From positions 62,001 to 126,000 of the forward strand of contig NZ_JANGCE010000002.1 in the NCBI RefSeq assembly GCF_024462775.1: 64,000 nucleotides of DNA, read 5' to 3'. Under the pieces are notes generated by a model that was given only the letters and a program-made list of their open reading frames with translations, was not told where the DNA came from and ran no database searches. The first letter of the stretch is position 1. Every line of letters begins with the position of its first letter. This document shows, one piece after another, positions 43,716 through 60,342 of the stretch. The position numbers and the translations under genes were made by a program. This DNA is from Butyricicoccus faecihominis (GTDB lineage Bacteria; Bacillota; Clostridia; Oscillospirales; Butyricicoccaceae).

Positions 43716-44546
43716 TTACTCTGTCTCGGCGTGCTGCTTCGCGCCATAGGCCGTGGGAAAGTACCATGGCGTGCCGCCTGCCAGCGCGCCGCCGTCCACG
43801 TTATACACCTGCCCCGTCATATAGCTCGACGCGTCGGATAGCAGCAGGATTGTCATGCCCATCAATTCCTCCGGCTGCGCCATGCGGCGGCAGCAGGTCA
43901 TGTCCTCAATACAGGATAGGCGCGCCTGATCCTCTTTCAATTCGCGGCACAGCGGCGTTTCGATAAAGCCGGGCGCGATGGCGTTGGCCTGAATGCCAAA
44001 CCCGCCCCATTCGACCGCCATCGACCGCGTCAGTCCCAAGATACCGCTTTTGGCGCAGCCGTAAACCGAGCTGCCGCCGCAGATGCGCGTGGAATTGTAG
44101 GAGGCGATATTGACGATCTTGCCGCCCCGCCCCCGCATCGCCTTGCGCACCACCTGCTGCCCCATGAAAAAGGCCGCCTTCAGATTGACGTCCATGATCG
44201 CGTCGTACAGCGCCTCGTCCACATCGAGCAGGCCCAGCCGCTTGCTGACGCCCGCCCCGTTGACCAGACCGTCGATGCGGCCGTGCGCCGCAAGCACCTC
44301 GTCCACGCAGGCCTCGATCTCGCTCACCCGCCGCAGATCGACCCGATGCGCCGTATGTCCCGCGCCCTGCATGGTCGGTAGCACCGCCCGCACCGCATCC
44401 AAGTTCAAGTCGCACAGCGCTACCTCCGCGCCCGCGCCCGCAACGGCCCGCGCCATCTCGCTGCATATGCCGCCGCCCGCGCCGGTGATCAAAACCACCT
44501 TGCCTTCTAAAGAATAGTGTTTTCGCAGATTTTCCGCAACATTCAT
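43716..44546 (-). CDS. Short-chain dehydrogenase/reductase
   Basis: NAD(P)-dependent oxidoreductase of the classical SDR type, 276 residues. The cofactor motif TGAGGGICSEMA, NGAG (VNGAGVSK), the catalytic serine in NIASYNST and YGCAK for Tyr/Lys are in place, and the ending YMTGQVYNVDGG is typical. The acidic CDLNLD after strand 2 favours NAD(H). A polyol or hydroxy-acid substrate is likely. It is the last gene of the nine-gene left arm, 16 bp after the preceding dehydrogenase. Confidence 0.9.
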   Translation of the reverse strand: MNVAENLRKHYSLEGKVVLITGAGGGICSEMARAVAGAGAEVALCDLNLDAVRAVLPTMQGAGHTAHRVDLRRVSEIEACVDEVLAAHGRIDGLVNGAGVSKRLGLLDVDEALYDAIMDVNLKAAFFMGQQVVRKAMRGRGGKIVNIASYNSTRICGGSSVYGCAKSGILGLTRSMAVEWGGFGIQANAIAPGFIETPLCRELKEDQARLSCIEDMTCCRRMAQPEELMGMTILLLSDASSYMTGQVYNVDGGALAGGTPWYFPTAYGAKQHAETE

Positions 44547-44562
44547 AGCTGTAAGCTCCTTC

Positions 44563-45585
44563 TTATCCTCCCACCGTCAACACGATCTTGCAAGCGTCCG
44601 CTTCCCGCTGCAAGGCAAGCGCGAACGCTTGCTCGTACTGCTCCAGCGGGAACGTATGCGTCACAAAGCGCCGCAGCATATCCATGCGCGCGGGCAGCGC
44701 CGCCAGCACCTTAGGAAACATTTTGTACTGATGCCGGGTGCCCGCGATGGTTAACTCCTTTTGATTGAGCGGCGCGAAATTGACCGGGACCGGGTCGCTG
44801 CTGAACGACAGCGGCACGATCGCTCCCGCGGTCGCCGCCAGCTCGATCGAGAGCGGCAGCAAGGAAACGTCGTCCGTCGCGTCAAAGATCTCGTTCGCAC
44901 CCACGCCGCCGGTCTGTTCCATGACAAACGCCCGCAAATCATCTGTTCGCGGATCGATCGTCGCATCCGCGCCAAAGGCCGCCGCCCGGCAGCGACGGCT
45001 TTCACTTGGGTCGGATACGATCGCGCGGGCGCCCAGCCGCTTTGCGGTATCCAGCACCATCAGGCCGATCGGCCCCGCGCCGTGGATCAACACCGTGTCG
45101 CCGGGCAGAGTGCCCGCCCTCGCATGCGCCTGTTCGCCGATCGTACAGGGCTCGATCGCGGTGGCAAGCGCCCAACCAATATCGTCTGGCAAGTGGAACA
45201 GGTTGCGCGCCGGACTGACAAAATACTCGGCAAAGCCGCCGTCCACATGCACGCTGACGATCTGTAGATTCCGACATACGTTGCGCCTGCCCCGGCGGCA
45301 GGCGTGGCAATCGCCGCAGTATCGCAGCGGTTCCGCGATTACCCGGTCGCCGGGCGCAAGCCCGGTCACGCCATCGCCCACCGCTTGCACCTCGCCCACG
45401 ATCTCGTGCCCCGGAATGCGCGGGTACTGCGCCGCGGAATTGCCGCCGCAGAGCAAATGCAGATCCGAACCGCAAATGCCCACAGCGTGTACCCGGACCA
45501 GCACGTCGTCCGGCCGAATGATACGCGGCGGCTCCACCTCACGCAATCCATAAACGCCCGGCCTTTCGACCACGATTGCTTTCAT
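44563..45585 (-). CDS. Zinc-dependent medium-chain alcohol dehydrogenase
   Basis: A 340-residue polyol-dehydrogenase-like enzyme. Catalytic zinc ligands are in VGICGSDLH and GHEIVGEV; the structural zinc site CGDCHACRRGRRNVC is intact; the Rossmann motif is HGAGPIGLMVLD with acidic SDPSESRR, suggesting NAD. Its start overlaps the epimerase-like stop by 4 bp (45582-45585). It sits in the left arm of the LacI divergon; its substrate is probably the imported compound or an intermediate. Confidence 0.92.
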   Translation of the reverse strand: MKAIVVERPGVYGLREVEPPRIIRPDDVLVRVHAVGICGSDLHLLCGGNSAAQYPRIPGHEIVGEVQAVGDGVTGLAPGDRVIAEPLRYCGDCHACRRGRRNVCRNLQIVSVHVDGGFAEYFVSPARNLFHLPDDIGWALATAIEPCTIGEQAHARAGTLPGDTVLIHGAGPIGLMVLDTAKRLGARAIVSDPSESRRCRAAAFGADATIDPRTDDLRAFVMEQTGGVGANEIFDATDDVSLLPLSIELAATAGAIVPLSFSSDPVPVNFAPLNQKELTIAGTRHQYKMFPKVLAALPARMDMLRRFVTHTFPLEQYEQAFALALQREADACKIVLTVGG

Positions 45586-46259
45586 ACTGATACCGCCTTT
45601 CCTTCCGCTGCCGCGCGGATGCGCGGCACGATCCGATCATAGGGCGCTTGCTGCCCCAAAAGCACGCGGTTGCCGCAGATGAATCCGCGTACCCCCTGCT
45701 TTGCGAGCCGGGCGATTACCGCGGGCGTAACGCCGCCGTCTATCATCACGGTATAGCCCCACCGCGCCTGCCCGGCGGCAAACCGCTTGATCTTCGGCTC
45801 GACAAAGTCCAGATAGCTTTGTCCGGCAAAGCCGGGATTCACCGTCATCAGCAGCACATAGTCGCAAAGCGGCAGCAGCTCCTCCACCTGTGCTAAGGAG
45901 GTCCCCGGATTCACCGCCAGACCGCTCTTGCAGCCCAACGCGCGGATCGTCGCAAGGGTCGCCGCAGGGTGGCGGTCCGCCTCCGCGTGAACATACAGGA
46001 TGTCGGCCCCGTGCTCCGCCGCCAGACCGATGTAGCGCGCCGGATCGTTCACCATCATATGCACATCGATCGGCCGCTTCGTATGGCGGCGTATCGCGTC
46101 CAGATCCTGCATGCTCATTCCAAGGTTGCCGACAAAGCCGCCGTCCATCAGGTCAACATGAAACAGATCGACCCCCGCGCGGTCCAGCGCTTCCACCTCT
46201 TCCACGATGCGGTCCACCGGCAGGTAAAAGGCGGATACTGAAAGAACAAGAGATTGCAT
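45582..46259 (-). CDS. Ribulose-phosphate 3-epimerase-like protein with altered phosphate loop
   Basis: A 225-residue TIM barrel of the RPE/allulose-6-phosphate epimerase family. Catalytic and metal residues are kept: HVDLMDG (His34, Asp36), DVHMMV (His67), VNPGFAGQ, MIDGGV (Asp174). The last phosphate-binding loop, usually G-S/T-rich, reads CGNRVLLG (195-202), placing an Arg where phosphate normally binds. It is in the TRAP/dehydrogenase operon, not with pentose-phosphate housekeeping genes. Activity on a non-phosphate anion is possible but unproven. Confidence 0.85.
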   Translation of the reverse strand: MQSLVLSVSAFYLPVDRIVEEVEALDRAGVDLFHVDLMDGGFVGNLGMSMQDLDAIRRHTKRPIDVHMMVNDPARYIGLAAEHGADILYVHAEADRHPAATLATIRALGCKSGLAVNPGTSLAQVEELLPLCDYVLLMTVNPGFAGQSYLDFVEPKIKRFAAGQARWGYTVMIDGGVTPAVIARLAKQGVRGFICGNRVLLGQQAPYDRIVPRIRAAAEGKAVSV

Positions 46260-46358
46260 GCTTCGCCTCCCTTTTCTGTTTTGCTCGGATGAATCATTTT
46301 GCCCACCGGCGTGCTGCCGGCGGGCAAAAGAAATGTGTACGCTGTTGGTTTACCTTCC

Positions 46359-47654
46359 TTATCCCGCCAGCAGATTGGGCAAAAAGGTGACGATTTGCGG
46401 GATATACGTGATCAGCAGCAGGCAGATGATCAGCTGCGCGATATAGGGCAGCGCTTCCCTTGTATAGTCCTCTATTCGCGTGCCGGTGATCGAGGTGGAA
46501 ACGAACATCATCGCGCCAAACGGCGGCGTCATGCCGGCGATGGTCAGGTTGACCGCCAGCACGATACCGAAATGGATCAGATCGATGCCCAACGCCTGCG
46601 CTGCAGGCACCAAAAGCGGCGCGAGTAAGATCATCGCCGCGCCGCCGTCGAAGAACATACCGACGATGAGCAGCAAGATATTGACGACGATGAGGAACAC
46701 ATACGGGTTGGAAATGCCGCTGATGATCGCTTCGGAGATCATATTCGGCAAACGCTCCCAAGTCAAGTAGATCGAAAACGCCTGCGCGCCCGCCAGAATG
46801 AACATAACGCCGGCCGTGTTCACAACCGATTCCTTGATGATCTTCGGAATGTCGGACGGCTTAAGCTCCTTATAAACGAACATGCCGATGATAATAGCAT
46901 ACAGTACGCAAATCGCGCCCGCCTCGGTCGGCGTGAAAATGCCGAAGCGCAGGCCGAGAACGAGGCCGAACGGCACGAACAGCGCTGGGAGCGCGTCGAT
47001 AAAAGCACGGCCGAACTCGCCGCCGGAAGCCGCCTTTTCGCGCGAGGGCTTGTAGTTTCTCTTTTTGGAGATCCACCAAGTGAGCACCATCATGGTAACC
47101 GTAATGACGATGCCGGGGATATAGCCCGCATAGAACATTTTGGCGACCGAAACGTTAGAGGCTGTTGCGTATAGGATCAGGATAATGCCGGGCGGGATGA
47201 TCGGCGTGATGCACGAGGACGCCGCGGTGACCGCGCAGGAAAACGCGCGGTTATAGCCGAGCTTCTCCATCTGCGGCACCAGCATTTTGCTTTGCAGCGC
47301 GGCGTCCGCGTTCGCGGAGCCGGACAGGCCGCCCATCAGCGCGGAAAGCAGCACATTGACCTGCGCCATGCCGCCGCGCATTTGACCGACGATCATTTCC
47401 GCCAGCCCCATCAGACGCTTTGTAATGCCTGAATAGCCGAACACCACGCCCGCGCAGGTAAAGAACGGGATCGCCAAATAAGTAAACGATGAATTGGACG
47501 AGATCATTTTTTGTATCATGCTGCACGGGTCCATCGTCCCCGGGGCGAGCAGAAAATAGCTGGCAGCCGCAATGATCATAGAATAAGCGACCGGCACCTT
47601 GAGAAAGAACAGAACGAATAAAATGATGATCGGCACTACAGACCAGAATGACAC
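46359..47654 (-). CDS. TRAP transporter large permease (DctM family)
   Basis: Twelve-helix membrane subunit that drives sodium-coupled uptake of an anionic solute. It begins SFWSVVPIIILFVLFFLKVPVAYSM and has the DctM hallmarks GGLSGSANADAAL, AASSCITPIIPPG and FFDGGAAMILLAPLLVPAA. The start is GTG 47654 with AAGGGGG 7 nt before it; the frame extends further without a site. It lies directly after the small permease gene. TRAP substrates are mostly carboxylates or sulfonates; the exact one is unknown. Confidence 0.94.
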   Translation of the reverse strand: MSFWSVVPIIILFVLFFLKVPVAYSMIIAAASYFLLAPGTMDPCSMIQKMISSNSSFTYLAIPFFTCAGVVFGYSGITKRLMGLAEMIVGQMRGGMAQVNVLLSALMGGLSGSANADAALQSKMLVPQMEKLGYNRAFSCAVTAASSCITPIIPPGIILILYATASNVSVAKMFYAGYIPGIVITVTMMVLTWWISKKRNYKPSREKAASGGEFGRAFIDALPALFVPFGLVLGLRFGIFTPTEAGAICVLYAIIIGMFVYKELKPSDIPKIIKESVVNTAGVMFILAGAQAFSIYLTWERLPNMISEAIISGISNPYVFLIVVNILLLIVGMFFDGGAAMILLAPLLVPAAQALGIDLIHFGIVLAVNLTIAGMTPPFGAMMFVSTSITGTRIEDYTREALPYIAQLIICLLLITYIPQIVTFLPNLLAG

Positions 47655-47670
47655 AGCGTTTCCCCCTTTC

Positions 47671-48168
47671 TCAGGTACGTTCCTCAAGGGCGGCTTCTTC
47701 GATCTTTTCGCCCTTTAGGCACTTTATCATGTTATAGAATGAATAGCCGCCCAAGATCAGGGCCGCCGCCGGCACGCTCAGATCGACCCAGAAATACGGG
47801 ATGCGCAGGATCGGGGTCGAACGCACCAGCCCTTGGATCGAAAGCTCGATCCCCCAAACGATCAGGCCGATATTGGCCACGCCGACCAGCGCGAAGGTAA
47901 AAGCCTGTACTGCGCGCTGGACCCCTTCCGGCAGGCGGCTGACCAGCGCGTCAATGGAGATTAGCCCTTGATTGCGGTATACGATGCAGATGCCGAAAAA
48001 CACCGCCCAGTTAAAGCTGAGATAGGCGATCTCCTCCGCCCAAGCAAACGATTTAGAAAACAGAAAACGCGCCAGTACGTTGACCGTTATGACGCCGACC
48101 ATGACGACAAAGCCGGTTCCCGCCACGATCGTTTCCAGACGGTATAGGATATCTCCGAATTTTTTCAT
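47671..48168 (-). CDS. TRAP transporter small permease (DctQ family)
   Basis: A 165-residue four-helix membrane protein with the DctQ motifs VNVLARFLFSKSFAWAEEIAYLSFNW (only the start and SFAWAEEIA part is diagnostic) and a terminal helix AALILGGYSFYNMIKC. The start is ATG 48168 with GGAGG 8 nt upstream, not the ATG at 48183. It lies between the solute-binding and large-permease genes in the standard P-Q-M order. Confidence 0.92.
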   Translation of the reverse strand: MKKFGDILYRLETIVAGTGFVVMVGVITVNVLARFLFSKSFAWAEEIAYLSFNWAVFFGICIVYRNQGLISIDALVSRLPEGVQRAVQAFTFALVGVANIGLIVWGIELSIQGLVRSTPILRIPYFWVDLSVPAAALILGGYSFYNMIKCLKGEKIEEAALEERT

Positions 48169-48204
48169 ATGTGGTTCCTCCATCCGGTCCGGCAGTGCGA
48201 TCGC

Positions 48205-49221
48205 TTACGCGATCGCCTGCTGGATGCGCTCATACAGACCATCCGACCATTCCGGGAACTGCTTCGGCGTGTCCTGCGCGGCTTCGATAAACGCGGCCTT
48301 GTCGATCTCAATGATCTGCACGCCCTCGTCCACCAGCTTTTGCTCGTATTCCTTTTCCACGCTCTGCACCCGCTCGACCGCCTTATCGGCAAAATCGGAA
48401 GCGCAGTCGTCGATCGCCTTTTTCGCCTCGTCCGAAAGCGACTGGTACACCTCTTCGCTCATGACGATCGCGGTGGAGGCGATCAAATGCTCGGTGCGTA
48501 CCAGATACTTGCAGGGCTCGTACAGGCGCGCGGAATAGAGAAGGCCCATCGGAGACTCCGCGCCGTCCGCCACGCCCTGCGACAGCGCCTGATAGGTTTC
48601 GCTCCACGCGGTGTTGGTCGCGTTGCCGCCGAGCACGCGCACGACTTCGTTCCACATCGGCGTGGCCGCGCAGCGGATCTTCAGCTTGCCGATGTCCTCG
48701 CGCGAATGCACCTCTTTATTGCAGATCAGGTTGCGCGCGCCAAAGTAATGCAGATCGATCAGGTGCAGGCCCTTATCCGCCAGCGCTCGGCTCCAATCCT
48801 CGCCAACCTCGCTTTTCCAAAGCGTTTTGATCTGTTCGGGGGTCTGGATCAGGTAGGGCGCCATCCCGGCCGCCAGATCAGGCACGTAATTTGCCAGATA
48901 GGAAAGGTCGCAGTCCACCACGACCGGTTGGCCCATGGCCGCCATTTCCAGCACGTCGGCGGTGGCGCCGAGCGCTTCGGAGGGATACAGCTCGTAGTTC
49001 ACTTCCTCGCCGGAGGCCTCGCGGATATCGGAAAAGTACTCGTCGTACCACTGGTACTCGGGATCGGTGCTGGCCTTGACGAAGTTGAACTTCAGTGTGA
49101 CCTTGTTTCCGCCCGCCTCGCCGCTTTGCCCGCCGGCTGTTTTCGCGTCGCCGTTTCCGCAGGCCGCCAGTGATACGCACAGGCTCGCCGCTGTCAATGC
49201 TGCTAACAATCGCTTTTTCAT
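48205..49221 (-). CDS. TRAP transporter solute-binding lipoprotein (DctP family)
   Basis: The extracytoplasmic binding protein of the TRAP system, 338 residues. A lipoprotein signal KRLLAALTAASLCVSLAACG precedes the mature Cys. The DctP fold shows MGQPVVVDCDL, YFGARNLICNKEV, KIRCAATPMWNEVVRVLG with the arginine that usually binds the substrate carboxylate or sulfonate (R in IRCAATP), and YQALSQGVADGAESP. First of the three TRAP genes. Confidence 0.94.
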   Translation of the reverse strand: MKKRLLAALTAASLCVSLAACGNGDAKTAGGQSGEAGGNKVTLKFNFVKASTDPEYQWYDEYFSDIREASGEEVNYELYPSEALGATADVLEMAAMGQPVVVDCDLSYLANYVPDLAAGMAPYLIQTPEQIKTLWKSEVGEDWSRALADKGLHLIDLHYFGARNLICNKEVHSREDIGKLKIRCAATPMWNEVVRVLGGNATNTAWSETYQALSQGVADGAESPMGLLYSARLYEPCKYLVRTEHLIASTAIVMSEEVYQSLSDEAKKAIDDCASDFADKAVERVQSVEKEYEQKLVDEGVQIIEIDKAAFIEAAQDTPKQFPEWSDGLYERIQQAIA

Positions 49222-49302
49222 TGTGAAAACCCCTTTTCATTACACGTTCTTAGTTTGTCTTTTTTTTCTTTATTCATGATGCCAAACGGCAACCATAAAC
49301 AT

Positions 49303-50103
49303 TTATTCGCCCCGGTAGTTCGGTTCGCGCTTTTCCAGAAAGGCCGTTACGCCCTCCGCGAAGTCCTGATGCCGCGCCATATACCGGGTGTAGGTGACCT
49401 CCAGATCGTTTTTTCGCTTCATCTGAAAATCCTCCTGTGCGTTCAGGCACGCTTTCAGGTACCGAAGCACCAGCGGGCCGCGTTTCACCAGCTCCCGCGC
49501 CTTGGCCATGGCCGCGGGCATCAGCTCTTCCAGCGTATCGACGACCTGCGTCACGCCGCCGTACCGTTGCAGCTCCTCCGCCGTCAGAAAGGTGCCGCAG
49601 TAGCACATATCGCGCTGGATCATCGGCGGCAGGATGCGCCCCAGATGGCCCGAGCCGCCGACAACGGATAGCTTGGCCTCCGGCGCGCCGAACACGGTGT
49701 CCTTCACCGCGATGGTGATATCGGCCCCCGCCGGGTAGCACAGGCCGCCGCCCAGACAGTGCCCGTGCACCGCGCAGATGAGCGGCACGCGCAGCTCGTA
49801 CAGCGCCAGCGCCCCATCGTAATACTTTTCCTGTACGTTGGTCACGTCCCGGTCGTCGATGCTCTTCTTAAATCGTTTGATGTCAACGCCCACGCAAAAG
49901 GTTTTGATATCCGAATGCAGGATGCATACCCAAATATCATCCTCCCGATCAATGTAATCGCACAGCAGCAGAATCTCCTCCTGCACCGTGCCGCTCGCCG
50001 CGTTAACGGGCGGGTTGTGCAGCGTCATGACCGCAATGTGGTCCTCCACGGTCAAAAACACCTGTTCCAGCTTGTGCGCGCCCACGTGTTCCACTGTTTT
50101 CAT
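49303..50103 (-). CDS. Enoyl-CoA hydratase/isomerase (crotonase) family protein
   Basis: Acts on a CoA thioester. Oxyanion-hole motifs are visible in KTFCVGVDIKRF (first) and HGHCLGGGLCYPAGADI (second). The positions where classic hydratases have two catalytic Glu read differently: one lies in FGAPEAKLSVVGGSG, where the Glu is kept; the second is not evident. So hydratase, isomerase or lyase chemistry are all possible. It overlaps the CoA-transferase end by 4 bp, tying the two steps together. Confidence 0.88.
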   Translation of the reverse strand: MKTVEHVGAHKLEQVFLTVEDHIAVMTLHNPPVNAASGTVQEEILLLCDYIDREDDIWVCILHSDIKTFCVGVDIKRFKKSIDDRDVTNVQEKYYDGALALYELRVPLICAVHGHCLGGGLCYPAGADITIAVKDTVFGAPEAKLSVVGGSGHLGRILPPMIQRDMCYCGTFLTAEELQRYGGVTQVVDTLEELMPAAMAKARELVKRGPLVLRYLKACLNAQEDFQMKRKNDLEVTYTRYMARHQDFAEGVTAFLEKREPNYRGE

Positions 50104-51413
50104 GTCCCTGCCTCCTCGTTTCCATAGCGTTCGCGGTAAGCCTGCCGGAGCTCATCCCGGAAATCCGGGTGCGCGATAGAGATGAGCAGCCGCGCGCGTT
50201 CGCGCAGACTTTTGCCGCGCAGATCGACCGCGCCGTACTCCGTTACGATATAATGTACGTCTGTGCGGGTGGTCGTCACCGTGGTGCCCGGGGCAAATAC
50301 CGGCACGATACGAGAAACGGTACCATGCTTTGCCGTGGACGGCATGGCAAGAATCGCCTTGCCATTCGGACACATGGACGCGCCCCGCACATAATCGAGC
50401 TGCCCGCCGATGCCGGAAAACTGCTTTGCCCCCATGGATTCGGAATTGACCTGCCCGTTAAAATCGACCTGTAAGCAGGAGTTGATCGCCACCATTTTGT
50501 TTTGCTGCGCGATTACGACCGGATCGTTGACATAATCGACCGGCAGCATCAACACATCGGGGTTCTGGTCGACAAATTCATAAAGCTTTTTGCTGCCCAT
50601 CAAAAAGGCGGCCACCATTTTGCCCTTGTTCAGCGTTTTCGCCGCGCCGGTGATCACGCCCTTCCGGTATAGATCGACCACGCCGTCGGAAAACATTTCG
50701 GAATGGATGCCCAGATCCTTTTTATCGCCAAGAAATTTCAGCACCGCGTCCGGGATAGAGCCGATGCCGAGCTGCAAGGTCGAGCCGTCCTCGATCAGCG
50801 CCGCGCAGTTGCGGCCGATCGCCTCCTCCACCGCGCCGATGCTGCCGCCGCCCAGCTCGGGCAGCGGGCTGGACGCTTCCACCGCATAGGTAAGACGCGA
50901 AACGTGAATAAAAGAATCGCCCATGGTGCGCGGCATTTGGTCGTTGATCTGCGCGATCACGATCTTTGCCGCCAGCGCCGCCGGCTTAGTGCCGCCCACC
51001 GAAACGCCGAACGAGCAAAAGCCGTGCTTGTCGGGCGGGGTCAGGGATACCAGCGCCACATCGACCGGCATGGTGCCGTCCGTGAAAAACCGGGGCGACT
51101 GATAGAAGAAAAACGGGGTGTAATCCGCCCGCCCTTCCTGCACGGCGGCCCTTGTGGACGGACCGACGAACAGCGCGTTATGCCGGATGTGCCCTGCCAT
51201 TTTGGGCAGCGTATACTCGCCCTTGCCCATCGGCACCCAATGAACGATCTCCACATTTTTATACTGCTCATAGTTTTGCACCATCGCGTCCACCAAGACC
51301 GGCGGCTCGTTCGCGGCGTGCCCGAAAAACACGCGCGCGCCGTCCGGTATATGCTTCACCGCCTCCGCAGCCGTGGTCAGCTTGGCGCGGTAGATCTCTT
51401 TCCAATCCTGCAT
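50100..51413 (-). CDS. 4-Hydroxybutyrate/acetyl-CoA-type CoA-transferase
   Basis: Predicted to move CoA between a short acyl-CoA and an organic acid. The 437 residues match the 4-hydroxybutyrate CoA-transferase (AbfT/Cat2) group in overall motif order: VFFGHAANEPPVL, LGIGSIPDAVL, the catalytic glutamate in HSEMFSDGVVDLY, KQFSGIGGQLDYVRGAS and VTEYGAVDLRGKS. Butyryl-CoA:acetate transferases are close relatives and cannot be excluded. It is coupled to the crotonase gene and lies in the LacI left arm. The partner 4-hydroxybutyrate dehydrogenase-like gene is in the right arm. Confidence 0.9.
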   Translation of the reverse strand: MQDWKEIYRAKLTTAAEAVKHIPDGARVFFGHAANEPPVLVDAMVQNYEQYKNVEIVHWVPMGKGEYTLPKMAGHIRHNALFVGPSTRAAVQEGRADYTPFFFYQSPRFFTDGTMPVDVALVSLTPPDKHGFCSFGVSVGGTKPAALAAKIVIAQINDQMPRTMGDSFIHVSRLTYAVEASSPLPELGGGSIGAVEEAIGRNCAALIEDGSTLQLGIGSIPDAVLKFLGDKKDLGIHSEMFSDGVVDLYRKGVITGAAKTLNKGKMVAAFLMGSKKLYEFVDQNPDVLMLPVDYVNDPVVIAQQNKMVAINSCLQVDFNGQVNSESMGAKQFSGIGGQLDYVRGASMCPNGKAILAMPSTAKHGTVSRIVPVFAPGTTVTTTRTDVHYIVTEYGAVDLRGKSLRERARLLISIAHPDFRDELRQAYRERYGNEEAGT

Positions 51414-51440
51414 GTTGTGTTCAGCCCCTTTTATGCGTTG

Positions 51441-52475
51441 TTACGAAAAATCAATGAGTACTTTCAGCATGGATTTATCCCGCCGCGCCGCCTCAAACGC
51501 TTCCACGGCCTTTTCCTTTGGGTAAACAGCGGAAACCACCCGGCGTAAATGCTTATCGAGCAGACCGTCGTCGATGATCTTGGCCGCGGCTTCCATTGAG
51601 CGCGCGGTCGAATTGCGCACGCCCAAATAATTCGCTTCATTAAAAATGATCGCGTTCACATCAAAGCCGCTTTCAAACGAACCGCTGCCCGGCATGCCGA
51701 CCTGCACCATCGTCGCGCCCTGCCGCAGCATTTTCAGGCAGGTATCGAAGCCGCTTTGAAAGCCGGTCACTTCAAAAACGCGGTCAAATTTCCTGCCGCC
51801 CGTAACGGCGGTGCACTGCGCTTCAAAATCCGCGGCCGCAATATCCGCCACGTCAAAACCCAGCTCGCGCGCGATGCGGATGCGATCGGCGTTGATCTCG
51901 GCCAGCACCACGTGTGCAGCGCCGTTCAGCCGCGCCACCATACCGATCAGCACGCCGATGGTGCCCGCCCCGGCGATAAACACATCCTCGCCCGCCTGCA
52001 AGCCCGACCGCCGCACATCGTGCACCGCGATCGTCAGCGGCTCGACCAGCGCCGCGAGCTTCATATCGACCTCCGCCCGGAAGGGAACGATCCGGTCGGC
52101 GCGGCATTTCACATATTCGCTGTAAAAACCGTCGCAGCCCGCGCCCATGATCTCAATCCGCTTGCACAGGTTCTCACGCCCCGACCGGCACATCTCGCAC
52201 GATCCGCAGCCCTTGACCGCGTGGATCGCGACCTTATCGCCCGGTTTCAGATCGCGTCTTCGCACGCTGTCGATCGATACGATCTCGCCGCATACCTCGT
52301 GCCCCATGACAAAGGGCGGGCGCGCCGTCGGATGCTGGCCGGACATGATGTGCATATCCGAACCGCATATCCCCGCGTACCGGACGCGGACAACCGCTTC
52401 CTCTTCCTCCGGTTCCGGAATAGGCGCTTCCACCAGTTCCAGCTTGTTGATATCTGTTAAAACCAATTTCTTCAT
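51441..52475 (-). CDS. Zinc-dependent sorbitol/threonine-dehydrogenase-like enzyme
   Basis: First gene of the left arm; 344 residues. Catalytic zinc region YAGICGSDMH and GHEVCGEI, structural zinc cluster CGSCEMCRSGRENLC, and Rossmann motif AGAGTIGVLIGMVARLNG followed by LAEINADR are all present. It probably oxidises a secondary alcohol of a polyol or sugar acid with NAD. The upstream 200 bp carries several operator-like motifs, so expression is likely set by the adjacent LacI protein. Confidence 0.92.
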   Translation of the reverse strand: MKKLVLTDINKLELVEAPIPEPEEEEAVVRVRYAGICGSDMHIMSGQHPTARPPFVMGHEVCGEIVSIDSVRRRDLKPGDKVAIHAVKGCGSCEMCRSGRENLCKRIEIMGAGCDGFYSEYVKCRADRIVPFRAEVDMKLAALVEPLTIAVHDVRRSGLQAGEDVFIAGAGTIGVLIGMVARLNGAAHVVLAEINADRIRIARELGFDVADIAAADFEAQCTAVTGGRKFDRVFEVTGFQSGFDTCLKMLRQGATMVQVGMPGSGSFESGFDVNAIIFNEANYLGVRNSTARSMEAAAKIIDDGLLDKHLRRVVSAVYPKEKAVEAFEAARRDKSMLKVLIDFS

Positions 52476-52530
52476 TGCTCTATTTGCCTCGTTTCCGGTG
52501 CCGCTGCACCATATTCAAAGAAATGCTGTA

Positions 52531-52643
52531 AGAAACCGTTCTCGGTACCGCTCCCGCAGAGGTTTCAGAAATATCCCCTGTAAAGTGTAATCATAGGGGG
52601 ATTACCATATATAGCCGGTACCGTGACCGGCACCGTTCCCGCG
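52531..52643. promoter_or_regulatory. LacI-type operator cluster before the left arm
   Basis: GGTACCGCTCCCGC (52544-52557) and GGCACCGTTCCCGC (52629-52642), plus weaker GAAACCGTTCTCG (52532) and GGTACCGTGACC (52617). The shared core is an 11-bp odd-centred dyad GGNACCGNTCC. They flank the expected promoter of the 52475 gene. Confidence 0.6.
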
Positions 52644-52678
52644 ATCGAATAAAGAACCGTCCGCCCACGAATGTTCGC

Positions 52679-53698
52679 TCATGAGCGGACTTTGCTTGTA
52701 CTCTCCCTGACGCACAGCGTCGGCGCGATATCAATCGAATGCGCGCGCTGCGTGTTCGGCTCCTCCAACAGGTCGAGCAGCAGATCGACGCATAGCTGCC
52801 CTTTTTCTTCGATATGCTGATCCACCGTTGTCAGCGCCGGGCTGATCTGTGCGGCGATCGGGATATTATCGAAGCTGACGATGGAGATATCATCCGGCAC
52901 GCGCATGCCGCTGTCGCGCACCGCGCTTTCCACGCCAATCGCCATATAGTCGGAAGCGACGAAAAGCGCGGTGATGTCCGGATGGGCGGATAAGATCTCT
53001 TTTGTGGCGGCATAGCCCGATTCGATCGAGTTGCCGCCCTCGCGGATCATTCCTTCCGTAACCGGAAGGTTTTCGGCGCGCATCGCGTCCAGATAGGCGC
53101 GGCAGCGTTCCCCGCTGGAGGGCAGGAAGTGCGGGCCGTTGATATAAGCAATCCGCCGGTGGCCCAGCCCCAATAAATGCTCCATCGCGAGCATCGCACC
53201 TTTATAGTTGTCGGTACAGACCTGATAGGCGTTTGATAAGAACTGACACTTGCCCACCGTCACAAACGGAATATTGCTTTCCAGAAAAGTCGTCATCGCG
53301 CTTTTATGCTCGGGCAGCGGGCTGACCATGATCAGACCGTCCACCCGGCGCTGCTTGACCGCGTTAATGGCTTCCTTCATATCCTTGCAGCACAGCAGCA
53401 GCACATAATAGCCGCGTTTTTGAGCCGCTTTCAGCATGGTTCGCTGAATTTCGGAATAATACTGGTTTTTGAAAATATAGTCGATATCGTGCGGGATGAC
53501 CACGCCGATGCAGTTGCAGCGCTTTTGCGACATGCTGATCGCGTACACGCTGGGTTGGAAGCCGTACTTTTCCACGATCTCCATCACCCGCTGCTTGGTT
53601 TCCGGCAGTACATCCGGCTTGCTGTTGAGCACACGCGAAACGGTGGATTTGGAAACGCCGGCTTCCCGCGCAATTTCAGATATGGTGATATTGGCCAT
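52679..53698 (-). CDS. LacI-family transcriptional regulator
   Basis: A 339-residue repressor: helix-turn-helix TISEIAREAGVSKSTVSRVL, hinge helix region NSKPDVLPETKQRV, then the periplasmic-binding-like ligand domain (VVIPHDIDYIFKN, DNYKGAMLAMEHLLGLGHRRIAYI, FVASDYMAIG, DDISIVSFDNIPIA). The effector is probably the imported compound. It sits between the two arms of the catabolic divergon with operator-like motifs on both sides, so it very likely controls both and itself. AGGAGGGG precedes the ATG. Confidence 0.94.
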   Translation of the reverse strand: MANITISEIAREAGVSKSTVSRVLNSKPDVLPETKQRVMEIVEKYGFQPSVYAISMSQKRCNCIGVVIPHDIDYIFKNQYYSEIQRTMLKAAQKRGYYVLLLCCKDMKEAINAVKQRRVDGLIMVSPLPEHKSAMTTFLESNIPFVTVGKCQFLSNAYQVCTDNYKGAMLAMEHLLGLGHRRIAYINGPHFLPSSGERCRAYLDAMRAENLPVTEGMIREGGNSIESGYAATKEILSAHPDITALFVASDYMAIGVESAVRDSGMRVPDDISIVSFDNIPIAAQISPALTTVDQHIEEKGQLCVDLLLDLLEEPNTQRAHSIDIAPTLCVRESTSKVRS

Positions 53699-53857
53699 CG
53701 TTTCTCCCCTCCTCCGTCCGTTGTTCCGTCTGTCTGTTTCACACTATACGTTCAACCGTCCGCTTTGTCAATACCCGAAAGGCGTATTTTTAACCCCTTC
53801 GCGGCAATTTTGTGAACAACCGCCATTCTGTGCAGATGATCTTTGTATAAATCTCAT

Positions 53858-53946
53858 AAAACCGTTCCCGCAGAGTATTTCCCATCGTTTTATGTGGATT
53901 TACAATAGGACTTTGTGCAGGTTGCATTATCTCCCGGGAACGGTTT
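53858..53946. promoter_or_regulatory. Inverted pair of LacI-type operators
   Basis: AAAACCGTTCCCGC (53858-53871) and its reverse complement CGGGAACGGTTT (53935-53946) lie 63 bp apart, upstream of the right-arm promoter. The spacing would suit looping by a tetrameric or bridged repressor. Confidence 0.6.
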
Positions 53947-53987
53947 CGTGCAATCTTTTCAAACTTATTGAAATTTCGCAAAAGCGC

Positions 53988-54016
53988 TTGACTTCCGCTC
54001 CGCTCCGGTTTATAGT
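53988..54016 (+). promoter_or_regulatory. Promoter of the right arm
   Basis: TTGACT, 17 bp, TATAGT on the plus strand; start near 54023. Confidence 0.75.
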
Positions 54017-54093
54017 TGCCATAGAAACAGGAATGCGCAGGAGATCGGTCCGGCTGTGCCGAACCGTCCGCGCCTTTCTTTTTGTAACGTCGC

Positions 54094-54107
54094 GGTACCG
54101 CTCCCGC
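54094..54107. promoter_or_regulatory. LacI-type operator in the right-arm leader
   Basis: GGTACCGCTCCCGC, identical over 14 bases to the site at 52544-52557 on the other side of lacI. It lies about 70 nt downstream of the predicted start, a roadblock position. Confidence 0.65.
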
Positions 54108-54174
54108 GCAAGGCTTCAATCATAATATCGATAGGATCACTCGTGCTTCAAACGCTAAGGAGGCTGTCTAACAA

Positions 54175-55290
54175 ATGAAAGAATTTAAAATGTACGCTGA
54201 TATCGTCTATCAGGATTCGCTGCAAGACTTTATGGAAAGCGAACGGATCGATGGAAACGATTTTATCCTTACGAACGAATTTCTCTATCACGAATTTGTA
54301 AGTCCCCTCGCCCCGCCGTGCGGCGCGCTCTTTATCGAGGCCTACGGAAAGGGCGAGCCGACGACCGATATGGTAGACGCCATTCGCAAGGATTTGCCCG
54401 CCGGCATTCGCCGCTTGATCGCGATCGGCGGCGGCTCGGTCATCGATATCGCCAAAATGCTCTCGCTTCATGTGCCAAGCGAAAAGACGGAGGATCTGTT
54501 TCTTGGCCAGCAAGCGCCCACGCGCATTTACGAGGTCTACGCCCTGCCCACCACCTGCGGCACCGGCAGCGAGGTAACGAACGCCTGCGCCGTCGAATTG
54601 ACCAGCCTGCACACCAAGCGCGGTCTGAACAGCCCCTTGATGTTCCCGGCGAAGTCCGTGCTGATCCCCGCGCTGATCGAGGGCCTGCCCTATCGTTTTT
54701 TCGCCACCTCCTCGATCGACGCGCTAATCCACGCGGCCGAATCCTTCCTTTCCCCCAATGCCTCGCCGGTTTCCGAATTGTTTTCCAAGGAAGCGATGCG
54801 GCTGATCATCAGCGGGTATCGGTACATTCTGCAAAACGGAACGGACAAATGGGCCGACCGCGCCTCGGATTTTATCAGCGCATCCAATTTCGCGGGCCTT
54901 GCGTTCTGCTCCGCGGGTTGCGCCGCCGTGCACGCGCTCAGCTATCCCCTTGGCGGCGGCTACCACATCCCTCACGGCGAGGCCAATCAGCTCGTTTTTG
55001 CCGCCACCTTCCGCAAATATAAGGAGAAGCAGCCGGTAGGCAAGCTGAACGCGCTGGAGGCGCTCTGGGGCGAATGGCTGGGCGTGCCCGCCGAAGAGGC
55101 GCTTGAAGCCGCCTTCACGCTGTTCGATCAGGTGCAGGCCCGCCGGCCGCTGCGCGAGTACGGTATCCCGCAGGATGCGCTTTCCGGCTTTGCCGAGGGC
55201 GTGCTCGCAGGGCAGACGCGCCTTTTGAACAACAACTATGTGCCGCTGACGATCGCGGATATGATTGATATCTATCAGGCGGTTTATTGA
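54175..55290 (+). CDS. 4-Hydroxybutyrate dehydrogenase-like iron-containing alcohol dehydrogenase
   Basis: Group III metal-dependent alcohol dehydrogenase, 371 residues. Nucleotide motif AIGGGSVIDIAK, then PTTCGTGSEVT, and metal ligands in SSIDALIHAAES and VHALSYPLGGGYHIPHGEAN. The opening with FILTNEFLYHEF and the ending LLNNNYVPLTIADMIDIYQ resemble clostridial 4-hydroxybutyrate dehydrogenases as I remember them. It would interconvert an aldehyde acid and hydroxy acid with NADH. First gene of the right arm, with AAGGAGG 11 nt upstream of the ATG. A sulfoacetaldehyde-reductase-like role is an alternative. Confidence 0.88.
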   Translation: MKEFKMYADIVYQDSLQDFMESERIDGNDFILTNEFLYHEFVSPLAPPCGALFIEAYGKGEPTTDMVDAIRKDLPAGIRRLIAIGGGSVIDIAKMLSLHVPSEKTEDLFLGQQAPTRIYEVYALPTTCGTGSEVTNACAVELTSLHTKRGLNSPLMFPAKSVLIPALIEGLPYRFFATSSIDALIHAAESFLSPNASPVSELFSKEAMRLIISGYRYILQNGTDKWADRASDFISASNFAGLAFCSAGCAAVHALSYPLGGGYHIPHGEANQLVFAATFRKYKEKQPVGKLNALEALWGEWLGVPAEEALEAAFTLFDQVQARRPLREYGIPQDALSGFAEGVLAGQTRLLNNNYVPLTIADMIDIYQAVY

Positions 55291-55314
55291 TGGAAGAAAG
55301 CGAAGGGATGAAAC

Positions 55315-56157
55315 ATGAATAACAATTTAAAGGAGCTCAACATTTTCGCCGCACGGATCCGAAAGGCGGCGCTGCGCTCGATGAACTCGTTCCATGGCGG
55401 CCACGTCGGCGGCTCCATGTCCATGGCCGATCTGATGGCCGCGCTATACGGCGCGGCCATGCGGGTCGATCCGAAAAATCCCCAGTGGCCGGAACGCGAT
55501 TGGCTGGTCGTATCCAAGGGGCATTGCGGCCCCGCCGTTTACGGCACGCTCGCGCTCATGGGGTATTTCCCCGAGGACGAGCTGGAGACCCTGAATAAGG
55601 AAGGCACCCGCCTCCCCTCCCACTGCGACCGCAACCGTACCCCCGGCATCGATATGACCACCGGCTCGCTCGGACAGGGCGTTTCGTGCGCGGTGGGCGC
55701 GGCTTGGGCCATGCAGTACCGCGGCATGCCCAACATCGTATATACCATTTTGGGCGACGGCGAATGCGACGAGGGACAGGTTTGGGAAGCCGCCCTTTTC
55801 GCGGCGACCAAAAAGCTCGGCAACCTGATCGCCTTTGTCGATCAAAACCAAAAGCAGCTGGACGGCTTTACCCGGGAAATCTGCGACGTGGGCGACCTGC
55901 GCCAAAAGTTTGAGGACTTTGGCTGGCACGCGCAGGAGGTGGACGGCCACGATATCGCCGCCATTCTTGCCGCCATCGAGCAGGCCAAGCAAACGCCCGG
56001 CCAGCCTTCCATGATTGTGCTGCACACGGTAAAGGGCAAGGATTGCTGCTTTGCCGATCAGTATTACAACCACTTTATCCGCTTTTCGGAGGAGGATTAT
56101 CAAAACGCTGCCGACTGGCTGGATCAAAAAATCGCAAAGCTGGAAAGTGAGGACTGA
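55315..56157 (+). CDS. Transketolase, N-terminal (TPP-binding) subunit
   Basis: The N-terminal half of a split transketolase, 280 residues. Early histidines HGGHVGGSMSM, SKGHCGPAVYGTLA, TTGSLGQGVSCAVG and the TPP/Mg motif GDGECDEGQVWEAA...VDQNQ are intact. It needs the next gene's product for the pyrimidine-binding half; the pair is 3 bp apart. Split transketolases occur in specialised sugar pathways, and its position in the LacI divergon supports such a role instead of the general pentose pathway. Confidence 0.94.
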   Translation: MNNNLKELNIFAARIRKAALRSMNSFHGGHVGGSMSMADLMAALYGAAMRVDPKNPQWPERDWLVVSKGHCGPAVYGTLALMGYFPEDELETLNKEGTRLPSHCDRNRTPGIDMTTGSLGQGVSCAVGAAWAMQYRGMPNIVYTILGDGECDEGQVWEAALFAATKKLGNLIAFVDQNQKQLDGFTREICDVGDLRQKFEDFGWHAQEVDGHDIAAILAAIEQAKQTPGQPSMIVLHTVKGKDCCFADQYYNHFIRFSEEDYQNAADWLDQKIAKLESED

Positions 56158-56160
56158 ACC

Positions 56161-57123
56161 ATGTACAAAGTAGTCAGCGATATCCGCCCCGAAAACGAGG
56201 AAATGCGCGTAGCCTTTGCCGCTACCATGGAGGAATTGGCCGCGGCCGATCCCGATGTGGTCTATTTCGACTGCGACGTAATCAATTCAATCGGCATGAC
56301 GGCATTCTCCAAGAAATATCCCGACCGCTGCGTCGACTGCGGCATTCAGGAATCCAATATGATCTCCGCCGCCGCGGGCGCCTCCGCCGTCGGCCTAAAA
56401 CCCTTTACGCACACCTTCGGTCCCTTCGCGGCGCGGCGCGTCATCGATCAGGTTTACATTTCCGCCGCCTACGCGGGCCTCAATATCCGCATGGTCGGCT
56501 CTGATGCCGGCGTGACCGCCTCCTATAACGGCGGCACGCACATGCCGATCGAGGATATGGGCCTTTTGCGCACCATCCCGCAGGTCACGCTGCTGGAACC
56601 GACCGATTCGGTCATGCTGGCCGACCTGATGCGGCAGACCAAGGATCTGCACGGCGTATACTACATTCGCATCACCCGCAAGGTGACCGACCGCATTTTT
56701 GAGGAAGGCTCCACCTTTACCATTGGCAAGGCCGCCGAGCTGCGCGACGGAAGCGATGTGACGCTGGTCTGTTCCGGCTATTCCACTTCGGACACGCTCC
56801 GCGCCGCCGGGCTGCTCGCGAACGAAGGCATATCCGCCAAGGTGCTCAATATTTTCACCCTCAAGCCGATCGACGCCGAGGCGATCACCGCGGCTGCCCG
56901 CGCGACCGGCGCGCTCGTCACGGTTGAAAATCATAGTATCATCAACGGACTGGGTTCCGCCGTTGCCGAAGTGCTGGGCGAGACCTGCCCGGTCCCGCTC
57001 AAGCGCATCGGTGTGCCGGACGTTTTCGGCGAGGTTGGCTCGATCGATTACCTGAAAGATACCTTTGGCATGAACGTTCGCCATATCGTGGACGCGGCCA
57101 AAGAAGTGCTGCGCCGCAAATAA
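56161..57123 (+). CDS. Transketolase, C-terminal subunit
   Basis: Pyrimidine-binding and C-terminal domains of the split transketolase, 320 residues. It has GIQESNMISAAAGASAVG with the catalytic Glu that activates TPP, THTFGPFAARRVIDQVY, NGGTHMPIEDMGLLR, and a C-terminal domain with VENHSIINGLGSAVAEVL. The arginine and histidine set for phosphate binding in classic enzymes should be compared, since the operon lacks a kinase. Last gene of the right arm, followed by a terminator. Confidence 0.94.
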   Translation: MYKVVSDIRPENEEMRVAFAATMEELAAADPDVVYFDCDVINSIGMTAFSKKYPDRCVDCGIQESNMISAAAGASAVGLKPFTHTFGPFAARRVIDQVYISAAYAGLNIRMVGSDAGVTASYNGGTHMPIEDMGLLRTIPQVTLLEPTDSVMLADLMRQTKDLHGVYYIRITRKVTDRIFEEGSTFTIGKAAELRDGSDVTLVCSGYSTSDTLRAAGLLANEGISAKVLNIFTLKPIDAEAITAAARATGALVTVENHSIINGLGSAVAEVLGETCPVPLKRIGVPDVFGEVGSIDYLKDTFGMNVRHIVDAAKEVLRRK

Positions 57124-57251: not shown

Positions 57252-57288
57252 GCCGCCGCGTAACACATACGCGGCGGCCCGATTTTTT
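57252..57288. terminator. Second terminator between convergent genes
   Basis: GCCGCCGCGTA / TACGCGGCGGC, a perfect 11-bp stem with a 5-nt loop, followed on the plus strand by a run of seven T. It ends at the deoR stop. Confidence 0.7.
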
Positions 57289-58061: not shown

Positions 58062-58211
58062 ACGAATCCCGCCTTTTCGCTCTGATAAACGCCCGCCCTG
58101 CTTGGCAAGATATGGCGTTTTTTCTCTCTTACCTCTATCTTACTGAAAAAGCGACCCAAACACAAGCTGTTTTTGTAAATTCACGCCAAGGCAGCCCGGT
58201 TTTTCACAACA

Positions 58212-58248
58212 GCAAAAGGCGAAGCACCTATCGTACTTCGCCTTTTGC
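58212..58248 (-). terminator. Terminator after the iolO-like gene
   Basis: GCAAAAGGCGAAG / CTTCGCCTTTTGC, a perfect 13-bp stem around an 11-nt loop, 10 bp past the stop. Confidence 0.7.
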
Positions 58249-58258
58249 GTCGCGCTAT

Positions 58259-59080: not shown

Positions 59081-59110
59081 GCCGCCTCCTAATAAAGCCG
59101 GATTTGCGAA

Positions 59111-59134
59111 TGGGGCCTCGCAAACGAGGCCCCA
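59111..59134. other. Intercistronic hairpin
   Basis: TGGGGCCTCG / CGAGGCCCCA, perfect 10-bp stem with a 4-nt loop, between the zinc dehydrogenase and the iolO-like gene. No T-run follows on the minus strand, so an mRNA-stability or processing element is more likely than a terminator. Confidence 0.55.
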
Positions 59135-59192
59135 TCCACATGAGAGAGAGAAGAATAGGAAAGATATAAAGGATAGAGAATTGAGAGCGAAC

Positions 59193-60272: not shown

Positions 60273-60306
60273 AATAAACGCTCCTTTTCTTAACTGTTTA
60301 TTCGTT

Positions 60307-60342
60307 GCGGCGGGGCCATGGGGAGACCCAAGTCCCCGCCGC
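60307..60342. other. Intercistronic GC-rich hairpin
   Basis: GCGGCGGGG / CCCCGCCGC with an 18-nt loop, between the iolN-like gene and the next dehydrogenase; no T-run follows. Confidence 0.5.

What the first reader, a model, noticed from the sequence alone, without database searches (positions are those of the whole stretch)
43716..57123. LacI-controlled catabolic divergon with sugar-phosphate enzymes but no kinase
The 12 enzyme and transport genes include a TRAP importer (anionic substrates), an RPE-like epimerase, a split transketolase, two zinc dehydrogenases, an SDR, a crotonase, a CoA-transferase and a 4-hydroxybutyrate-dehydrogenase-like enzyme. No kinase, isomerase or aldolase is present. 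A substrate whose sulfonate or carboxylate mimics phosphate would need no kinase, as in sulfoglycolysis; from memory, a split transketolase next to an iron alcohol dehydrogenase also occurs in the sulfoquinovose transketolase route. The CoA-transferase plus crotonase part fits none of the pathways I know, so this may be an undescribed route.
Basis: partly seen in the sequence, partly recalled or inferred. Interest (0 to 1): 0.8.

Follow-up and report, generated by a model that had tools for sequence, protein, structure and literature searches.

The report
Kinase-free transketolase route for sugar acids
A gut-type anaerobic bacterium carries a one-regulator gene cluster that seems to import a sugar acid, chop it with a special transketolase and turn the leftover short acid into a CoA compound for fermentation, a route we could not match to a described one, although its exact substrate is still a guess.

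Summary
In detail: 12 enzyme/transport genes plus a LacI regulator, no kinase, isomerase or aldolase. A LacI-type operator (CGGGARCGGTNYCG) occurs exactly four times in the divergon's gaps, and again before FeADH-TK in a congener where FeADH-TK lies elsewhere, so both arms belong to one regulon. New: the genome has a paralogous operon with the same core (FeADH, split TK, Zn-dehydrogenase, CoA-transferase) but with genuine 4-hydroxybutyryl-CoA dehydratase (AbfD) instead of the crotonase; it recurs in other Clostridia. This suggests that the transketolase strips a C2 unit off a keto-acid sugar and releases a short semialdehyde, which is reduced, CoA-activated and dehydrated. The TK is in a catabolic clade with sulfoquinovose-type TK but is not one; nothing is sulfonate-specific. 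UxuA, the UxaA family and KDPG aldolase were not found in the window's species, whereas three relatives have part of the cluster beside uxuA. Best reading: a kinase-free, carboxylate counterpart of the sulfo-TK pathway feeding an enoyl-CoA electron sink. Substrate, chain length (C6->C4 or C5->C3) and crotonase reaction are inferred, and two relatives keep FeADH and crotonase without this TK.

The parts
43716..44546 (-). SDR oxidoreductase, best model KduD but below its cut-off; proposed C5 oxidation/reduction of a hexonate
   Evidence: (194 bits, cut-off 339); 79% in G011
44563..45585 (-). MDR1, Zn-dehydrogenase, nearest solved structure RspB (4ilk)
45582..46259 (-). ribulose-phosphate-3-epimerase-like; catalytic residues kept, Ser of the phosphate loop is Asn (residue roles recalled); proposed C4 epimerisation of a 5-ketohexonate
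46359..47687 (-). TRAP large permease DctM
   Evidence: 409 bits, cut-off 268
47671..48183 (-). TRAP small permease DctQ
48205..49221 (-). TRAP substrate-binding protein DctP, anionic substrate presumed
49303..50103 (-). crotonase (ECH); Glu142 kept, Cys122 at the position of the other catalytic Glu
50100..51413 (-). 4-hydroxybutyrate-CoA-transferase-like CoA-transferase
51441..52475 (-). MDR2, Zn-dehydrogenase; counterpart of the MDR in the paralogous operon (41%)
52531..52641 (.). operator cluster in the MDR2-LacI gap: exact sites 52543 and 52628, 2-mismatch sites 52531 and 52616
52679..53698 (-). LacI-family regulator
53743..53771 (-). promoter-like site before lacI
   Evidence: 11 of 12
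53857..54106 (.). operator cluster in the LacI-FeADH gap: exact sites 53935 and 54093, 2-mismatch site 53857
53988..54016 (+). promoter-like site before FeADH, between two exact operators
   Evidence: 10 of 12
54175..55290 (+). iron alcohol dehydrogenase, 4-hydroxybutyrate-dehydrogenase-like; proposed semialdehyde reductase
55315..56157 (+). split transketolase, N-terminal (thiamine-diphosphate) subunit
56161..57123 (+). split transketolase, C-terminal subunit; R358 S385 F434 D461 N469 H473 R520 in E. coli TktA numbering

Best explanation
A LacI-controlled, kinase-free catabolic route for a TRAP-imported sugar acid. Steps: (1) TRAP import [family shown, ligand unknown]; (2) SDR/MDR1/MDR2 make a keto group next to the terminal CH2OH, i.e. 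a 5-ketohexonate-type ketose acid [inferred]; (3) the RPE-like enzyme inverts the neighbouring carbon, as RPE does for ribulose 5-phosphate, with the carboxylate in place of phosphate [inferred]; (4) the split transketolase moves the HOCH2-CO- unit to glyceraldehyde 3-phosphate, giving xylulose 5-phosphate for central metabolism and releasing a short acid semialdehyde [inferred from the paralogous operon]; (5) the iron alcohol dehydrogenase reduces it to a hydroxy acid [inferred from family]; (6) the CoA-transferase activates it [inferred from family]; (7) the crotonase removes water to an enoyl-CoA that serves as electron sink (butyrate or propionate) [inferred]. In the paralogous operon AbfD points to 4-hydroxybutyrate, so the semialdehyde there should be succinate semialdehyde. 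With a crotonase here, the most likely acid is 3,4-dihydroxybutyrate, from a 2-deoxy-5-ketohexonate (C6 -> C4).
For: One regulon: exact operator sites 52543, 52628, 53935, 54093 in the window, against 0.05 exact per 64 kb (maximum 1) in 20 Markov sequences; 4 of 6 exact sites of G000 and 4 of 5 of G060 are in this divergon. In G012, FeADH and TKN (80%, 82%) lie at a separate locus, and one of that genome's 2 exact sites is 57 bp before its FeADH. G009 has an exact site in the gap before MDR2, G012 a one-mismatch site there. Paralogous operon on contig C10: FeADH 56%, TKN 64%, TKC 61%, MDR 41%, CoAT 56% plus AbfD; AbfD is genuine (1u8v, 750 bits). Of 80 TK loci from named genomes, 6 have strong FeADH, TKC and MDR matches, and the 4 of these that reach far enough also have AbfD and CoAT. 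FeADHs of 6 crotonase-carrying genomes form one clade (1.0). TK is in a clade of 32, all D461/N469, with the L054 transketolase. RPE keeps its catalytic residues, phosphate-loop Ser is Asn. UxuA (E<=1e-30), PF04295 and PF01081 (E<=0.001) have no match in G000 and G060.
Against: No substrate or product is shown. Of the six other crotonase-carrying genomes, only G060 and G012 have the window-type TK (100%, 82%); G011's contig ends inside FeADH and its best other TKN match is 51%; G009 (81% complete) has only the AbfD-operon type (63%) and no close FeADH (53%); G083 and G068 have crotonase and FeADH (74%, 72%) but no TKN above 52%. FeADH and crotonase therefore also work without this TK. G068 (100% complete) has no AbfD, so a passage by 4-hydroxybutyryl-CoA cannot be the rule. 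The uxuA link (G011, G012, G009) points to non-deoxy hexonates, for which the crotonase step makes little sense. All six crotonases aligned have Cys where the other Glu of enoyl-CoA hydratases sits. In the CoAT tree the CoATs of the AbfD operons do not form one group. D461/N469 also occurs in the C54 copy of G000 (L013), and every genome compared has a 48-50% match that may be its ortholog, so the signature may mark the clade, not the substrate. At one mismatch the operator pattern is no commoner than its control.
Confidence: 0.4

Rival explanations
1. C5 -> C3 version: the TK acts on a 2-deoxy-4-ketopentonate (for instance from 2-deoxyribonate), releasing malonate semialdehyde; FeADH makes 3-hydroxypropionate, CoAT and crotonase make acryloyl-CoA, and propionate is the product.
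For: A crotonase on 3-hydroxypropionyl-CoA is ordinary chemistry (a 3-hydroxypropionyl-CoA dehydratase, 5zai, is among the nearer solved structures); a CoA-transferase plus hydratase module from 3-oxopropionate/3-hydroxypropionate to propionate is described in Anaerostipes (passages of PMC8355322 and PMC7618129). It explains FeADH, CoAT and crotonase without TK and without AbfD in G068.
Against: FeADH and CoAT have C4 (4-hydroxybutyrate) enzymes as nearest solved relatives, and paralogs beside AbfD. The uxuA neighbourhood is C6 chemistry. No acryloyl-CoA reductase is evident in the cluster.
Confidence: 0.22
2. Ordinary hexonate/hexuronate operon: TRAP, MDR1/MDR2, SDR and RPE-like epimerase shuttle an aldonate to fructuronate or tagaturonate, which leaves by uxuB/uxuA; TK, FeADH, CoAT and crotonase are only fermentation helpers.
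For: uxuA beside part of the cluster in G011, G012 and G009, with a uxuB-like gene in G011 and G012; MDR1 is nearest to RspB. G000 and G060 do have PF01232 (UxuB/UxaB family) proteins.
Against: No match for UxuA, PF04295 or PF01081 in G000 and G060, so the usual exit is missing where the cluster is most complete; alternative dehydratase or aldolase families were not searched. TK, FeADH and CoAT are a set shared with another operon.
Confidence: 0.2
3. The crotonase is a lyase: an acyl-CoA sugar acid is split by retro-aldol cleavage into acetyl- or glycolyl-CoA and a shorter aldehyde, which TK and FeADH then use.
For: Cys in place of one Glu with the other Glu kept, invariant in 6 of 6, resembles the Ser/Glu pair of feruloyl-CoA hydratase-lyase (recalled, not from a call).
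Against: No entry among the 60 nearest solved structures listed is named hydratase-lyase; the AbfD operon, where this cleavage is not an option, has the same core.
Confidence: 0.08
4. A sulfonated sugar acid is the substrate (sulfo-TK route).
For: Same TK clade as L054/L055; split TK next to an Fe-ADH.
Against: No SQ isomerase, SqwI-type isomerase or transaldolase among the 13 proteins; FeADH 29% to the FeADH of L054; Ser not Ala at 385; CoAT and crotonase would have no role.
Confidence: 0.04

Closest known systems
Sulfo-transketolase (sulfo-TK) pathway of sulfoquinovose degradation (PMC11659671: passages and section 22 read)
   Same: No kinase; split TK moves C2 from a non-phosphorylated ketose to G3P; a reductase for the leftover semialdehyde (in L054 an Fe-ADH-family gene is adjacent); D461/N469 TK clade
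   Different: No SqvD, SqwI or transaldolase; TK motif RSFDR, not RAFDR; TRAP importer, RPE-like epimerase, CoA-transferase and crotonase instead
4-Hydroxybutyrate to crotonyl-CoA module (4HB dehydrogenase, 4HB CoA-transferase, AbfD)
   Same: FeADH and CoAT belong to these families; the paralogous operon has all three with TK
   Different: Crotonase in place of AbfD in the window cluster; coupled to TK and sugar-acid enzymes
Inositol/3-hydroxypropionate to propionate module of Anaerostipes (OxcT, EcdH, AcaD; passages of PMC8355322 and PMC7618129 read)
   Same: CoA-transferase plus hydratase turning a short oxo/hydroxy acid into an enoyl-CoA
   Different: 'Transketolase' occurs 0 times in either main text; homology of the enzymes not tested here
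Hexuronate/hexonate (UxuAB, KDG) pathway
   Same: TRAP, Zn-dehydrogenase and SDR types fit 5-ketohexonates; uxuA adjacent in three relatives
   Different: UxuA, UxaA family and KDPG aldolase not found in the window's species; TK and CoA part not in that pathway

Membership tests
Sulfo-TK pathway | split transketolase with a semialdehyde-reductase-type alcohol dehydrogenase, no kinase | tested here: met
   (families only)
Sulfo-TK pathway | TK sulfonate motif RAFDR (PMC11659671, section 22) | tested here: not met
   window RSFDR
Sulfo-TK pathway | SQ isomerase and SqwI-type isomerase in the cluster | tested here: not met
   no such family among the 13 proteins
Sulfo-TK pathway | sulfonated substrate | not testable with these tools
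   ligand unknown
4-hydroxybutyrate to crotonyl-CoA module | 4HB dehydrogenase and 4HB CoA-transferase families | tested here: met
   nearest solved structures; NCBIfam equivalog cut-offs are not reached
4-hydroxybutyrate to crotonyl-CoA module | AbfD in the cluster | tested here: not met
   crotonase instead; AbfD is elsewhere in the genome, three copies
Hexuronate (UxuAB/KDG) pathway | UxuA, UxaA family and KDPG aldolase in the genome | tested here: not met
   0 matches in G000 and G060; other families for these steps not searched
Hexuronate (UxuAB/KDG) pathway | uxu genes beside the cluster in relatives | tested here: met
   G011, G012, G009
Enoyl-CoA hydratase (crotonase proper) | two catalytic Glu | tested here: not met
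   Glu142 kept, Cys122 in 6 of 6 aligned orthologs; the equivalence to rat Glu144/Glu164 is recalled
Ribulose-phosphate 3-epimerase | catalytic and metal residues | tested here: met
   aligned with E. coli Rpe; residue roles recalled
Ribulose-phosphate 3-epimerase | equivalog-level score | tested here: not met
   TIGR01163 180 bits, cut-off 213; the broader subfamily model NF004076 is just passed (166.2, cut-off 165)
Anaerostipes propionate module | orthologous OxcT and EcdH | not tested
   their sequences were not retrieved

The most novel reading that the evidence does not exclude
A new kind of sugar-acid fermentation: a carboxylate mirror of the pentose phosphate segment (aldonate dehydrogenase, RPE-like epimerase, transketolase) in which the acid group replaces phosphate, and the leftover C4 semialdehyde is made into a hydroxyacyl-CoA and enters butyrate formation. 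A sister operon (radical enzyme, aldehyde oxidation, MDR, TK, FeADH, CoAT, AbfD) does the same for a neutral sugar or polyol in several gut Clostridia and could be the undescribed myo-inositol-to-butyrate route.
Probability: 0.28. Interest if true: 0.8.

Novelty: new variant of a known kind. Interest (0 to 1): 0.6.

Why it matters
If right, transketolase is a general tool for breaking down acidic sugars without ATP, not only sulfosugars, and gut Clostridia have a route from sugar acids or polyols to butyrate that annotation would call only 'transketolase', 'alcohol dehydrogenase' and 'CoA-transferase'. A 2025 review (PMC12482443, passages read) says that the myo-inositol-to-butyrate pathway of Dysosmobacter welbionis and Intestinibacillus massiliensis (unpublished data there) is not yet characterised; the sister operon found here occurs in a MAG labelled Intestinibacillus massiliensis (L035), which makes that question directly testable.

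Tried and rejected
Sulfonate reading: rejected (no sulfo-specific gene; TK motif differs). Anaerostipes-type inositol-propionate pathway with TK: a four-term search gave 2 papers, neither relevant by listing, and 'transketolase' occurs 0 times in the two Anaerostipes papers looked into. TK H461D/D469N as proof of a non-phosphate donor: not accepted, since the C54 copy of G000 shares it. Operator pattern with one mismatch as a regulon finder: useless, counts are like the reversed control. The exact sites at G011:C33:9344, G000:C45 and G060:C1:268364 were looked at and not assigned to a regulon gene; G000:C55 got no locus and was not looked at. AlphaFold2 model of the crotonase from six orthologs: mean pLDDT 39.6, unusable; no fold search was made. 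DctP gives no ligand: best solved relative 4ovt at 163 bits, no ligand named in the output. Candidate substrates thought of and not chosen for lack of evidence: KDG/DKII, quinate, ascorbate products, threonate, isosaccharinate. Spread of the crotonase: 7 of 87 family genomes (own included) at E<=1e-70; 0 of the 390 other genomes of a class-wide sample at E<=1e-60. The genome-contig scan used the TK pair only; the best 80 of 169 confirmed candidates were kept; the first neighbourhood table covered 29 of those 80, the later one all 80.


Full report
What is there. All 13 genes of the divergon are intact and in the stated families; the CoA-transferase's nearest solved relatives are called 4-hydroxybutyrate CoA-transferase and the iron alcohol dehydrogenase's nearest is Cvir-Hbd2. 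None is a kinase, isomerase or aldolase by family. Two divergent promoter-like sites stand between lacI and FeADH.

One regulon. A 14-base motif, CGGGARCGGTNYCG, recurs in the two gaps of the divergon: exact at 52543, 52628, 53935 and 54093, with 2-mismatch sites at 52531, 52616 and 53857. Twenty order-2 Markov sequences of 64 kb held 0.05 exact sites on average, at most 1. Of the 6 exact sites in G000, 4 are here; of 5 in the same-species genome G060, 4 are in its copy of the divergon. With one mismatch the pattern is no more frequent than its reversed control, so weight is put on exact sites only. In the congener G012, FeADH and TKN are at another place of the chromosome (80% and 82%), and one of that genome's 2 exact sites lies 57 bp before that FeADH; its lacI and MDR2-CoAT-ECH-TRAP genes are 2.8 Mb away on the record, with a one-mismatch site in the uxuA-MDR2 gap. 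G009 has an exact site in the same gap, G011 in its CoAT-LacI and LacI-FeADH gaps. The FeADH-TK arm and the TRAP-CoAT-crotonase arm therefore belong together by regulation and not only by adjacency. That LacI itself binds the motif is inference. The listing was cut before the rows of G083 and G068 and within those of G009; the intergenic stretches of G083 and G068 that I scanned for palindromes showed no such site.

The paralogous operon. Searching the genome with TKN found six other matches. The best, on contig C10, sits in FeADH-TKN-TKC-MDR-AbfD-CoAT-symporter-glycyl radical enzyme-activase. Identities to the window: TKN 64, TKC 61, FeADH 56, CoAT 56, MDR versus MDR2 41%. The dehydratase is a real AbfD: 750 bits to 1u8v, with the cysteine and histidine motifs I remember as iron-sulfur ligands kept in the alignment. 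Of the 80 TK loci fetched from named genomes (best 80 of 169 confirmed), 6 have strong FeADH, TKC and MDR matches (L033-L037, L052), and the 4 that extend far enough (L033, L035, L037, L052) also have AbfD and CoAT; none of the 80 has the crotonase. Three of the 6 show the radical enzyme in the fetched stretch. L033, L037 and L052 carry an aldehyde-dehydrogenase-like gene (family searched for L052 only) and L035 an aldehyde ferredoxin oxidoreductase. Since AbfD works on 4-hydroxybutyryl-CoA, the transketolase of that operon should, if the operon is one pathway, supply succinate semialdehyde: transketolase releases an aldehyde two carbons shorter than its ketose donor. The window has the same core with another dehydratase, so by parallel its TK releases a semialdehyde that, once reduced and activated, can lose a 3-hydroxyl. 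FeADHs of the crotonase-carrying genomes form a clade (1.0) next to those of the TK/AbfD operons (0.89); the support of the joining node was not printed. The CoAT tree agrees only in part: crotonase-linked CoATs group (0.93), but those of L033 and L052 join them (1.0) while C10, L037 and L035 fall elsewhere.

The transketolase. In E. coli TktA numbering (tktA fetched) the window subunit has R358, S385, F434, D461, N469, H473, R520. In a tree of concatenated subunits, 32 sequences form a clade with support 1.0, all D461/N469, apart from the mainly H461/D469 rest; the window, G012, C10 and the other AbfD-type operons are a subclade (1.0) (the printed tree was cut, the clade lists were not). L054, in the same large clade, stands beside an RpiB-type isomerase, two transaldolase-family genes and an Fe-ADH, like the Faecalicatena sulfoquinovose cluster, for which an RAFDR motif in place of RSFHR is reported (PMC11659671, section 22). 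The window is RSFDR: related, not the same. Caution: the C54 copy of G000 (L013) also has D461/N469, and each of the six genomes compared has a 48-50% match that may be its ortholog, so the signature may not mean a non-phosphate donor.

The hexonate link. In G011 the genes after SDR are uxuA, a uxuB-like gene, a broken glucuronate-isomerase-like piece (my reading), eda and a pfkB kinase. In G012 uxuA and a uxuB-like gene are divergent from MDR2, and G009 has uxuA in the same place. Yet G000 and G060 show no UxuA ortholog at E<=1e-30, no PF04295 (UxaA family) and no PF01081 (KDPG aldolase); they do have PF01232 (UxuB/UxaB family) proteins, and other families able to do the missing steps were not searched. 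The window's neighbours 57288-63999 are inositol genes: IolN and IolM above curated cut-offs, IolO-like below, and IolG above its cut-off about 8 kb beyond the window. From memory, that Thermotoga-type route ends at D-tagaturonate, another 5-ketohexonate. So the species probably makes 5-ketohexonates but lacks the textbook exit; the divergon is a candidate exit, though its own transporter and regulator argue for a separate inducer.

What does not fit. Seven of 87 family genomes have the crotonase. Of the six besides G000, only G060 and G012 have the window-type TK; G011's contig ends inside FeADH; G009 has only the AbfD-operon type of TK and FeADH; G083 and G068 carry crotonase (87%, 85%) and FeADH (74%, 72%) but no TKN above 52%, and G068 lacks AbfD (AbfD is in 45 of 87 family genomes). 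FeADH and crotonase therefore have a life of their own, which suits malonate semialdehyde/3-hydroxypropionate as well as 3,4-dihydroxybutyrate. A non-deoxy hexonate would give a 2-hydroxylated acid for which simple dehydration is odd. The crotonase has an invariant Cys122 where hydratases have Glu (6 of 6). These points keep the specific route below even odds.

Verdict. In the PMC subset, the listings (2 of 2, 3 of 3, 10 of 10, 1 of 1 and 12 of 42 papers listed) showed no description of a transketolase/CoA-transferase/crotonase or transketolase/AbfD pathway.

Noticed in passing
L012 (G000 contig C10), L033-L037, L052: A conserved operon of split transketolase, Fe-ADH, Zn-dehydrogenase, genuine AbfD and 4HB CoA-transferase (complete in 4 of the 6 named loci), with a glycyl radical enzyme of unassigned type in three of them, aldehyde-oxidising genes and sugar transporters; present in MAGs labelled Intestinibacillus massiliensis and (in part) Butyricicoccus. 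Possible myo-inositol or polyol to butyrate route.
   Followed up: partly
window 57288-63999 and L011:8331-9377: Inositol cluster of the IolG/IolM/IolN type (equivalog cut-offs passed) in a genome where UxuA, the UxaA family and KDPG aldolase were not found; the fate of its 5-ketohexonate is unclear.
   Followed up: partly
L127 (G012:C2:1805766) and L124 (G009:C19:49772): An exact copy of the operator motif lies beside an MFS-like transporter gene next to a tyrA-like gene in both genomes (names by eye), so this transporter may belong to the LacI regulon.
   Followed up: no
L113:16450-16659 (G012, before FeADH): A consensus-like promoter facing away from FeADH (read by eye), an operator-like site and a terminator-like hairpin within about 200 bp and no obvious gene: a possible small RNA or the remnant of the lacI promoter.
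   Followed up: no
L117 and L116 (G000 contigs C7 and C12): Further FeADH-CoAT pairs, one with a 99% identical second AbfD near a branched-chain-amino-acid-type ABC transporter (by eye); with a third AbfD on C23 the genome has several separate 4-hydroxybutyrate modules.
   Followed up: no
L054 (and L055): Sulfoquinovose-type cluster with split TK, Fe-ADH, RpiB-type isomerase and two transaldolase-family genes in a Lachnospiraceae MAG; L055 shares at least FeADH-TKN-TKC.
   Followed up: partly
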